A program made the translations under genes and the position numbers. From Asterochloris sp. CNOR1 (lineage: Eukaryota; Chlorophyta; Trebouxiophyceae; Trebouxiales; Trebouxiaceae): a DNA stretch of 64,000 nucleotides. Under the pieces are notes generated by a model. That model ran no database searches. It worked only from the letters and a program-made list of their open reading frames with translations, and was not told where the DNA came from. Each line of letters begins with the position of its first letter. The first letter of the stretch is position 1. The stretch lies in the NCBI GenBank assembly GCA_963969365.1, contig OZ017751.1:1488001-1552000 (forward strand), read 5' to 3'. Positions 3,801-60,665 of the stretch are shown here, piece after piece.

Positions 3801-6800
3801 GTGAACAGCTGCATGCTTCAGTCCAGAATTCTATCAGCACTGCCTTTCACAGGTGGGTGTTGTGTACATGGCCAAGGTTGCCACCTCTACTGCAGTGGAG
3901 CTGCTAACGCAAATAAGCCTGTAGCCCTGTGAGGTGCTGCGTGTCTGCCACTGCCTTGCGCAAATGCCCCTGCTCTTGCTGCAAAGCTGTGCTATGGCTG
4001 CACGCTTCAGGCGTCATGCTTGCCTGTCTTCAGAGAGCAACACCACTGCACAGCAGCATGCATGCATGCCTGGCCTGTGCTGCCTGCAGGCGACATATGA
4101 CCCTTATCTGCGCAGCAGGGTGACGCTGGGTGGCCTGTCGGACCACCTGTCAACTATCCGTAGGGGCAGGCGCATGCTGTTTGTGGCCTGTGGAACCTCC
4201 TTCCACGCCTGCTTGGCCTGCAGGTGGGCCCGACAGGCCTGATGCGTCCTAGCTAGTGCTTTCCAGCATTGGCCCTTCAGTCACTGCTGTCATGCAAGGC
4301 ATCCTGCGTTTCAGACTCTCTCTGCACCTGTCAAGGTGCCTGTGCCTTGGTGAAGCAGTAGTGAGCTACCTTACAGAAGCTGAGCCTGCCCTGTTCCTGG
4401 GCTGCAGGCAGACGGTAGAGGAGCTGACAGACATGCCTGTCAGCATGGAGATGGCGTCCGACCTCATGGACAGGCGGTGTCCCATCTTCAGGGATGACAT
4501 GTGCGTCTTTGTGAGCCAATCAGGCGAGACTGCAGACACATTGCAGGTGAGCTGAGCGAGTTTGCATGCAGCAGCTGCACATTCCATTCCTGCATGCTCT
4601 ACCTACGCAGCAGGGAACCTCTATCACAGAGTTGCTACATGCATATTGAGCTTCACTACCTTCAGGCAAAGCTGAGCTGATCAGTACAGCGGTCCACCCA
4701 TTGCAGCTCAGGCAGCTATACTGCAAAGTATGTGTCATATTCGGACCTCGTTGCCCTCTGCATAGGAGTCATCCATACGGTGGGCAGCGTGGACTGCCTC
4801 AACACCACACTTACCACTGCTTTGCAGGCTTTAACATATGCCAAGGATCGCGGCGCCCTCTGCATCGGCATCACCAACACGGTGGGCAGCGCCATTGCAC
4901 GCACCACCCACTGTGGCGTACACATCAATGCTGGTTGCGAGATTGGGGTGGCCTCCACCAAGGCCTACACCAGCCAGATGGTCGCCATCACAATGATGGC
5001 ATTGGCCCTCAGCGAGGACTCCATTGCCAAGCGGCCCAAGAGGGACGCCATCATCGATGCACTGGGGGCGCTGCCAGACGCCCTGCGCAAGGTGAGAGGT
5101 GGGCACTGTCTGCATTGCCATGTTGGCCCAAGGAATCTATCGCCAGATGGCCCAACATGAGCCCATCACCGCTGTGTTAAAGGCTCTGCATATGCCAGAA
5201 ATAGGCTGTGTTTCTGGCCTATTTCTGGCCTTCACATCAGTGACCTGGTGCATTGTGGGCTTTGTTCATGCTTGCCACTTGCTGCTCTGCCTATGGTGAG
5301 TATGCATAATTTCATGGGCCTTGAGGCTCTGGGCGCTCTGACGCACATCCTGCGTAAGGGGCAAACCCCGAGCACAGGCTGGCACGGTGCTGGCCTGGAA
5401 GCATGCTGCCTTGCAATGAGTTGCTGCCAGCTGTGCACTGGACTGGTCTGCATTGTTGATGCAGGCTGCTGCAGCATGGCAGTCAGTCTGCCCTCCATTC
5501 CTTGTTGGCAGATGGTGTCAACTGGACGTCGTGCGCAACCCTGCTGCAGGTGCTAGAGCTAGACTCAAAGCTGCAGAAGCTGGCTGAGACGCTCAAGGAT
5601 GAGAATAGCCTGCTCGTGTTTGGCAGGGGATACAACTATGCCACTGCCCTTGAGGCTGCGCTCAAGGTATGCTGCAGGCTGCTGCTCTGCCTGCACAAAT
5701 GCTGCTGGTTGCCAGGCAGAGGCATGGAGCTGTTCATTGTATACTTGATAGACCCCTCATTTGTATCTCTGACTCTGGCAGTTGGGTCACCCCACCAGCA
5801 CACATAATCGCTGCAGCTAATGCTTGCCCTGTGTGTGACTCTGCTGAGGGCTGCCGCCTGTTGGTCCCAAGATTGCCACTTAGTCTGTGAGCCATCTAGC
5901 TCACCTTCCAGCCCCACAAGTGATGGGTTGAGCTGTGATGCAGCCAGAGAAACAGTGCACAGCTCATGCTAAAGCCACCCTCGAAGCTCCACTATTGACT
6001 AAATCTACTACCGGCACAGCATGCAGCTATTTACAGAGACACTGCAACATTGTTGGCACCTGTCCCAACCCAGAATTGGTTCTCTGCCAGGTGAAGGAGG
6101 TGGCGCTGATGCACAGCGAGGGCATTCTGGCCGGCGAGATGAAGCATGGCCCCTTAGCACTGGTTGATGCGAGTATGCCCATCATTGTGCTTGCCACGCG
6201 GGACCGCATGCACTCCAAGATGCAGAGCGTCATCCAGCAGCTGCGGGCACGGGAGGCGCGCCTCATCATCGTGTGCAATGAGGGGGACCAGGGCATTGCC
6301 GACCTGTGTGGGCCGCAGTGCCAGATGATCCAGGTAAGCTATGTCCTTGCAGTGTCCTGCTCTCTGTTTTGCTCTGACACATATGGGAACATTGCCGACT
6401 TCTGCGGAATCAGGTGCGCATTCCTGAGTGCAGCTGCTCTGCCTCCAGTCATAAATATCGCTTTTGCTGCAGCAGTCTGAGTGGTGATACCATGCTTGTG
6501 TTAACAGTTGGTCTCAGTGCTGTTCTGCACCTGTCTTGCATCTGCCCACTTTGCGTGCAGCAAGGGCTCAGTGTCCTTCTGCTGATCCTAGGACCTAGAT
6601 GCTGGCTGCAAAGCCTCAATGCCATGCAATCGTCCTAAATGGCTCGATGAGCAGGTCCAGCACCCTTCATGCTCAGTCGTCTCGCTGACTGCTGCCAGCA
6701 TCCATGCCCAATTGCCAAACCTAACTACTGCCGCCCTTCAGGTGCCAGAGCTAGAGGACTGCATCCAGCCCGTCATCAACATTGTGCCCCTGCAGCTGCT

Positions 6801-6888
6801 CAGCTACCATCTGACCCTGCTCAGAGGCCACAACGTCGACCAACCAAGGAACCTAGCCAAATCTGTTACCGTCACTGAGGAAGAATAG
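831..6888 (+). CDS. GFAT: Glutamine:fructose-6-phosphate aminotransferase (isomerising), 13 exons
   Basis: This enzyme makes glucosamine-6-phosphate from fructose-6-phosphate and glutamine, the first step towards UDP-GlcNAc. Exons: 831-945, 1254-1427, 1827-2011, 2234-2338, 2711-2964, 3344-3413, 3607-3780, 4090-4222, 4408-4546, 4828-5091, 5550-5666, 6091-6333 and 6742-6888. The junctions I checked are in phase. The product is about 705 residues, close to the eukaryotic norm. The start MCGIFGYY places the catalytic Cys at position 2 of the class II amidotransferase domain. RYRGYDSAG is present as EYRGYDSAG. The SIS domains show [60 protein letters not shown] and the C-terminal [10 protein letters not shown] tail. 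The fifth exon uses a TAG acceptor. Intron 9 holds a decayed copy of part of exon 10. Confidence 0.96.
4704..4815 (+). repeat. Decayed duplicate of GFAT exon 10 start inside intron 9
   Basis: After an acceptor-like TTGCAG the sequence can be read LRQLYCK. Positions 4753-4788 then read [12 protein letters not shown], against [12 protein letters not shown] at 4855-4890 in the real exon. The 36-base core has 30 identical positions, and most changes are silent or conservative. About 16 extra bases and the lack of a good donor break it as an exon. Confidence 0.7.
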
Positions 6889-60420: not shown

Positions 60421-60665
60421 AGTACGTGAGGGCAGCCACAGCCTTGCCCGCTTCGATTTGCAAGCTGCAACATGTGATAAGGAAGTGCGGTATCAGCTGT
60501 TGCCGGCATGCGCTGCCTGTACCATGTGTGCATCTGCCGCGTCAGCTGCAAAAATCAGAGCACATCAATGTGGCCACAGCCTCGCGCGCAGGGTGCTGCC
60601 CCACCGCATGCCCCTGTGAGCTGCATGATAAGAGCACGTGAGGGCAGCCTCAGCCTTGCTGCACG
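60407..60665 (+). repeat. Duplicated 3' end of the unknown gene
   Basis: The stretch AGCTGCACTGACTAAAG plus TACGTGAGGGCAGCC and CAGCCTTGC around the stop at 60420 recurs at about 60618-60665 with small gaps. The second copy lies beyond the gene. Confidence 0.65.

What the first reader, a model, noticed from the sequence alone, without database searches (positions are those of the whole stretch)
4704..60665. Recurrent short duplications of exon edges with their splice sites into the adjacent intron
At least seven genes (GFAT, Hsp70-like, ISA2, EF-hand gene, CLEC16A homologue, RAB3GAP2-like, the unknown gene at 55.6-60.4 kb) carry direct repeats of about 30-60 bp, 65-215 bp apart. One copy spans a real exon-intron junction and the other lies in the intron. 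The repeats are not one family; each copies local sequence. States range from intact (both donors or acceptors usable) to clearly decayed. This would be a steady local source of new alternative splice sites, exon gain and intron growth. I looked mainly near exons, so enrichment at junctions is an impression, not a count.
Basis: partly seen in the sequence, partly recalled or inferred. Interest (0 to 1): 0.72.

Follow-up and report, generated by a model that had tools for sequence, protein, structure and literature searches.

The report
Old exon-edge copies inside neighbouring introns
Introns of this genome hold many old, decayed copies of nearby exon ends together with their splice sites; the pattern is real, but it looks mostly like the surviving trace of ordinary local DNA duplications that do least harm at splice junctions, not an active machine for making new splice sites.

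Summary
In 314 kb (window, 200 kb of flank, five 10-kb samples elsewhere), direct repeats lie mostly 50-300 bp apart; inverted ones are nearly absent. With gene models from a self-trained HMM, 41 of 86 pairs have one copy wholly in an intron and the other across a splice junction, against 17.1 +- 3.7 for random placement (0 of 2000 reach it). The intronic copy is on the intron side of that junction in 44 of 46 pairs (null 68%) and evolves about neutrally.

The interpretation changes. A neutral model without junction targeting comes close: short segments duplicated around a spacer, tolerated only if intronic or spanning one junction, the exon half decaying more slowly, all at one old age; no single setting fits every statistic. 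Faint intron-intron similarity is as enriched as exon-intron (both 1.44-fold), so the junction focus is largely survivorship. Copies are about 20% diverged and young ones nearly missing, so a "steady source" is not supported; splice use is untested. Closest known: direct-repeat footprints of staggered break repair in Daphnia introns. The apparent single old wave is the unusual part.

The parts
4753..4789 (+). GFAT: intronic copy of exon sequence (offset 102, 84%)
   Evidence: by hand the exon starts at 4828
4855..4891 (+). GFAT: exon copy, 27 nt inside the exon
9221..9316 (+). Hsp70-like gene: weak pair 9221-9246/9291-9316 (26 bp, 85%, 30.1 bits)
   Evidence: below the 34-bit cut, both copies intronic in my model
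18113..18157 (+). Isoamylase-like: exon end plus donor site (junction 18143/18144)
18181..18225 (+). Isoamylase-like: first intronic copy (offset 68, 84%), GT kept; nearly tandem
18316..18362 (+). Isoamylase-like: second intronic copy (offset 203, 77%), GT kept
30187..30240 (+). EF-hand gene: exon end plus donor (junction 30237/30238)
30396..30449 (+). EF-hand gene: intronic copy (offset 209, 80%), donor GT lost
35319..35375 (-). FPL/CLEC16A: intronic copy (offset 100, 88%)
35419..35475 (-). FPL/CLEC16A: copy across the junction at 35430
36072..36092 (-). FPL/CLEC16A: short copy across the junction at 36087 (partner 36195-36215, 95%, 21 bp)
38286..38434 (-). FPL/CLEC16A: pair 38286-38334 (intron) / 38386-38434 (exon), offset 100, 82%
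41107..41247 (+). RAB3GAP2-like: pair 41107-41151 (across junction 41144) / 41207-41247 (intron), weak (31.9 bits, below the cut)
43024..43156 (+). RAB3GAP2-like: near-tandem pair, second copy across the junction at 43130 (offset 69, 78%)
58317..58443 (+). Unknown gene: pair, offset 84, 86%; exon model uncertain here
59525..59578 (+). Unknown gene: intronic copy (offset 129, 87%), acceptor AG kept
59654..59707 (+). Unknown gene: copy across the acceptor junction at 59664
60403..60659 (+). Unknown gene: pair 60403-60447/60616-60659, both intronic in my model, offset 213, 87%

Best explanation
These are fossils of short local direct duplications. A segment of roughly 30-110 bp was duplicated so that its two copies came to flank a spacer of tens to about 200 bp; the best-fitting process is repair of a staggered break with fill-in of both ends and filler DNA between them (the spacing and topology are shown; the repair step is inferred). 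Duplications inside exons were removed by selection (inferred). Those inside introns were neutral. Those spanning one splice junction were neutral too, because splicing at the outer site removes spacer and second copy together. Afterwards intron-intron pairs decayed in both copies and faded, while in junction-spanning pairs the exon copy was held by selection, so mainly the exon half and the splice site remain recognisable. This makes old neutral duplications look like targeted copying of exon edges. The visible copies share a fairly narrow old age (about 0.2-0.25 substitutions per neutral site in the model).
For: Direct only, short range. Junction class 41 of 86 against 17.1. Intronic copy on the intron side in 44 of 46 against 68%. 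Near-neutral mismatches by codon position .178/.147/.212 in 71 exon/intron pairs with 139 gap columns, against .166/.164/.282 and 12 gap columns in 17 exon/exon pairs. Little residual homology beyond the visible repeat in junction/intron pairs (intronward 66 against 57.5 seeds, exonward 56 against 57). Faint intron-intron similarity at 60-300 bp: 2094 shared 8-mers, excess 642 (sd 134); exon-intron 1520, excess 468 (sd 81); both 1.44-fold; reversed, complemented and inverted controls near 1. Model, L 30-110, t 0.25, indel 0.3: II/IJ .33, EI/IJ .25, exon part 35.5, intron part 12.5, visible 49, identity .83 against observed .24.24, 38, 12, 53.80. Same model at t 0.20: k-mer ratios 1.40 and 1.11 against 1.27 and 1.10. 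Introns with a copy are longer, median 406 (n 42) against 313 length-weighted.
Against: The model was chosen after the fact from grids (27 settings, 36) with assumed exon constraint and indel rates, and the two tests prefer different ages: at t 0.20, indel 0.3 one search gives II/IJ .64 (observed .24), at t 0.25 one search gives ratios 1.09 and .73 (observed 1.27 and 1.10). Gaps are 1.30 against .96 per pair. It needs a single old epoch with 434-813 events at those two settings (123-2693 over the M1 rows), itself odd. Some pairs look tandem (isoamylase; L028 and L029 pairs with repeat longer than offset), and pairs with both copies across junctions do show extra seeds outside the repeat (56 against 35.5). 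The origin of the spacers was not found. No relative was available to show the empty site.
Confidence: 0.58

Rival explanations
1. Plain tandem duplications of 70-220 bp units spanning one junction, whose intronic part has decayed beyond recognition.
For: Explains direct orientation, same-side topology and tolerance. Isoamylase (about 59 of a 68-bp unit visible, my reading) and a few pairs with repeat longer than offset fit. Its k-mer ratios also fit at t 0.2, indel 0.1 (1.30 and 1.07).
Against: Predicts longer visible repeats (82-104 against 53), exon part 57 against 38, and 2.3-3.4 gaps per pair against .96 at t 0.2 with indel 0.1-0.3, and residual seeds beyond the visible part (about 1.1-1.2 per pair above the spaced model by simulation, about 0.2 observed).
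Confidence: 0.2
2. A process that specifically copies exon edges with their splice sites into the adjacent intron.
For: The source profile peaks sharply at -30..+10 around both junction types (9.2% of 337 and 13.1% of 343 junctions against 1% by construction). Homology stops about 5-9 nt into the intron. At t 0.20 the neutral model leaves a junction excess of about 2.7-fold (II/IJ .64 against .24).
Against: At t 0.25 the neutral model gives the same short intron part (12.5 against 12) and nearly the same class ratios, and faint intron-intron similarity is as enriched as exon-intron.
Confidence: 0.12
3. Templated insertion: short stretches near a break are copied into an intron from a source on either side (polymerase-theta-like repair).
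For: Explains spaced copies without flank homology.
Against: Predicts 67-70% same-side copies against 44 of 46; such insertion can also give inverted copies (recalled), and these are nearly absent.
Confidence: 0.05
4. Copies are kept by selection as alternative splice sites or exons.
For: Some copies keep intact sites (12 of 28) and visible copies are of similar age.
Against: Codon-position pattern and gaps fit neutral decay, no multiple-of-three bias (15 of 46), the invariant splice letters are lost more often than exon letters (gene-finder bias possible).
Confidence: 0.05

Closest known systems
Direct-repeat footprints of staggered double-strand-break repair in new Daphnia introns (PMC4202315, passages seen)
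   Same: Direct repeats inside introns and between intron and adjacent exon, read as staggered breaks; proposed passive growth of introns.
   Different: There the exon-adjacent repeats are 4-12 bp and repeats are commoner in new than in established introns (61.1% against 16.2%); here repeats are about 20-135 bp, 60-300 bp apart, and old (about 20% diverged).
Intron gain by tandem genomic duplication with duplicated AGGT (review PMC3443670, passages seen)
   Same: Local duplication that includes splice signals and is removed by splicing.
   Different: That makes a new intron with donor and acceptor at homologous places; here mostly an existing intron holds a copy of one edge. I noticed one candidate of the AGGT kind (L018 near 7455).
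[quoted passage not shown] seen only as a reference, content recalled)
   Same: Duplications within genes that include exon-intron boundaries.
   Different: Not compared; scale and age here were measured only in this genome.
Introners (PMC9860276, passages seen)
   Same: Episodic gain of intron sequence; found mainly in fast-evolving lineages such as green algae.
   Different: Introners are families of similar introns, some with 3-9 bp target duplications; the spacers here show no clear family and the repeats are longer.
Small tandem duplications at breaks (PMC5730883, PMC8355091; titles and abstract starts in the listing only)
   Same: Break ends give direct local duplication.
   Different: Those are adjacent copies; here the copies are mostly spaced.

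Membership tests
Staggered-break (fill-in) repair footprints | Direct repeats only, at short range | tested here: met
   74 direct against 3 inverted at score >=18 in 264 kb
Staggered-break (fill-in) repair footprints | Repeats flank unrelated inserted DNA | tested here: inconclusive
   Little flank homology beyond the repeat; spacer origin unknown
Staggered-break (fill-in) repair footprints | Insert plus one repeat absent in relatives | not testable with these tools
   No related genome is held
Daphnia-type neointron repeats | Exon-adjacent repeat of 4-12 bp at the far end of a new intron | tested here: not met
   Exon parts 1-85 nt at >=32 bits, median 38 at >=34 bits; copy junctions lie 15-814 bp from the far intron end
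Tandem (AGGT) intron gain | Donor and acceptor at homologous positions, intron length equal to offset | tested here: inconclusive
   One candidate noticed; the pairs with both copies across junctions (14 of 86) were not examined one by one
Introners | Insert shared among many sites | tested here: not met
   35 of 46 spacers (>=40 bp) compared: 4 pairs >=28 bits against 1, 1, 3, 2 in four random intron sets; overlaps within one intron not separated out; only 314 kb, old families could be missed
Minisatellite or tandem array | Repeat length equal to offset | tested here: not met
   Visible/offset median .38 in I/J pairs >=34 bits; a few exceptions

The most novel reading that the evidence does not exclude
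A single ancient wave of local break repair (or of long-target-duplication insertions, perhaps tied to intron birth) laid down roughly one duplication per intron across this genome, built much of its intron length, and then stopped; exon edges act as anchors that keep these fossils countable and datable.
Probability: 0.2. Interest if true: 0.68.

Novelty: new variant of a known kind. Interest (0 to 1): 0.42.

Why it matters
If it holds genome-wide, junction-spanning duplications give an internal clock for how introns grew: the exon half is preserved by selection, so old events in introns stay visible long after intron-intron ones have faded. It also warns that copies of exon edges in introns can look like targeted splice-site creation when they may be only what selection and decay leave behind.

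Tried and rejected
Templated insertion from either side: disfavoured on topology (44 of 46 same-side). Constant-rate process: rejected within the models (identity and k-mer slopes). Spacer family or transposon: no family seen in 314 kb. Local composition as the cause: reversed, complemented and inverted k-mer controls near 1. In-frame alternative splicing: no multiple-of-three bias. A first reading that plain decayed tandem duplication explains all was dropped after the seed test and simulations. I also thought that the sharp stop of homology 5-9 nt into the intron showed splice-directed copying; the simulation gives a short intron part too, so I withdrew that as proof. A first round of simulations with uniform ages fitted none of three processes. 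Literature: nine searches showed no paper on exon-edge copies of this kind in their listings, in that library and with those terms only.

Not done: comparison with any related alga (none held), RNA evidence, species identification (two SSU family searches returned machine errors), one-by-one study of the 14 pairs with both copies across junctions.

Full report
What was examined. The window is part of a 3.37-Mb contig of a 56.4-Mb genome in 21 contigs. I added 200 kb of flanking DNA and five 10-kb samples from other contigs, 314 kb in all. The species was not identified. Gene models come from a hidden Markov gene finder trained on this DNA: 34% coding, 55% intron; in the 264-kb stretch median exon 108 and median intron 206 bp; 714 introns in all six sequences. 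There is no RNA evidence behind any junction.

Is the pattern real? Yes. Gapped self-comparison found 81 direct pairs of >=34 bits at offsets 50-300, two of them from a coding array, and one at 600-1500. With an ungapped scan and a 9-mer seed in 264 kb, 74 direct and 3 inverted pairs of score >=18 lie within 1 kb. Twenty of the 86 retained pairs come from the five other contigs, unevenly: one sample gave none and one gave one. Four pairs of a coding array at +80.4 kb were dropped (90 to 86).

Is it at junctions? Yes, against random placement: 41 of 86 pairs have one copy wholly intronic and one across a junction, null 17.1 +- 3.7, reached in 0 of 2000. Intron-intron pairs (10) and exon-exon pairs (3) are fewer than their nulls (21.3 and 8.1), exon-intron pairs 10 against 15.2; pairs with both copies across junctions are more (14 against 5.0). 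The result repeats in the window (9 of 14), the flanks (23 of 52) and the other contigs (9 of 20). Tiled 40-nt queries show the source peaking at -30..+10 around donors and acceptors, with exon interiors near background and a weak intron side. Exon-only queries of up to 60 nt find copies in the adjacent intron at 26 of 468 donors (controls 0, 1, 0) and 19 of 466 acceptors (controls 2, 2, 3); 28 of these 45 alignments end within 4 nt of the junction (0 of 8 controls); identity continues through about 5-9 nt of the splice site and then falls to background.

Anatomy. In 46 clean pairs (>=32 bits; 19 donor, 27 acceptor), 44 have the intronic copy on the intron side of the junction; random placement gives 68%. 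Mismatches by codon position (.178/.147/.212, 71 pairs) and many gaps say that the intronic copy evolves freely. Beyond the visible repeat there is little homology on the same diagonal for junction/intron and intron/intron pairs, but some for pairs with both copies across junctions (56 against 35.5 seeds). Spacers form no clear family. Introns with a copy are longer (median 406, n 42, against 313 length-weighted and 242 plain), as expected if an event adds about the offset, though detection is biased to long introns. The exact splice letters are kept in 12 of 28 copies, fewer than exon letters; the gene finder could favour this by choosing intact copies as exons.

What explains it? I simulated three processes on the real gene structures, with selection and decay. 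With uniform ages none fits: in the spaced models intron-intron pairs should outnumber or nearly equal junction pairs, and identity should be near .87-.89. With old events (t 0.25 per neutral site and copy, indel 0.3) the spaced-duplication model comes close on class ratios, exon and intron parts and visible length without any junction preference. A second test does not rest on score thresholds: at 60-300 bp the excess of shared 8-mers is 642 (sd 134) for intron-intron and 468 (sd 81) for exon-intron, both 1.44-fold, with controls near 1. After control subtraction the intron/exon ratios are 1.27 (8-mers) and 1.10 (10-mers); the model gives 1.40 and 1.11 at t 0.20, 1.09 and .73 at t 0.25, and about 3.3 for uniform ages. 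So the two tests agree on an old age but not on one setting; at t 0.20 the threshold counts leave a junction excess of about 2.7-fold (II/IJ .64 against .24). The safe conclusion is that many decayed intron-intron duplications exist that the threshold search misses, and that most of the junction focus is what remains visible. Constraint and indel rates were assumed and settings chosen after the fact.

Tandem or spaced? Tandem units fit the k-mer ratios too (1.30 and 1.07 at t 0.2, indel 0.1), but predict longer repeats and more gaps than seen. A few loci, such as the isoamylase-like intron with copies at 68 and 203 bp, look tandem. Both kinds may be present. The repair step itself is inferred from known staggered-break footprints (passages of PMC4202315 and PMC3443670).

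Age. Only 4 of 86 pairs are >=90% identical over >=30 bp. With constant birth, young pairs must outnumber old ones, so the rate has fallen strongly or the events belong to one epoch. This speaks against 'a steady source' and is the part that I cannot explain. The implied number, 434 (t 0.20) to 813 (t 0.25) events in about 270 kb of genes, is 0.6-1.1 per intron and would account for a large share of intron length; that is an extrapolation that depends on the chosen setting.

Verdict. A real and countable pattern, correctly seen; the mechanism is most likely ordinary local duplication seen through selection and decay. A weaker junction preference is not excluded, and use of the copied splice sites remains untested.

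Noticed in passing
62526-64000, continuing to about +82 kb in L015-L016: Long intron-poor gene models, one with an AAA-like helicase stretch (Pfam AAA_30, 20.9 bits, below its cut-off of 27); an integrase-like stretch was my impression only, Pfam gave nothing. Looks like a large mobile or viral element.
   Followed up: partly
all sequences, offsets 200-225: Pairs of >=34 bits per 25-bp offset bin from 150: 6, 5, 12, 3, a bump at 200-225 near a nucleosome-like spacing; faint in intron-intron 8-mers (1.39 against 1.25 and 1.27), clearer in 10-mers (3.04 against 1.06 and 1.76). Could be chance.
   Followed up: partly
L018 near 7455: Donor and acceptor edges of one intron are homologous and the offset (130) equals the intron length: a candidate for intron gain by duplication of an AGGT-like site.
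   Followed up: no
about +80.4 to +81.0 kb from the window start (L016): Coding array with 108-bp period inside a 1202-residue model.
   Followed up: no
29840-29867 and 33310-33336: Pure C and G runs of 28 and 27 bases.
   Followed up: no
exon-edge copies in introns, 28 copies: The splice-site letters are lost more often than neighbouring exon letters (12 of 28 sites intact), which may mean selection against decoy sites, or a bias of the gene finder.
   Followed up: partly
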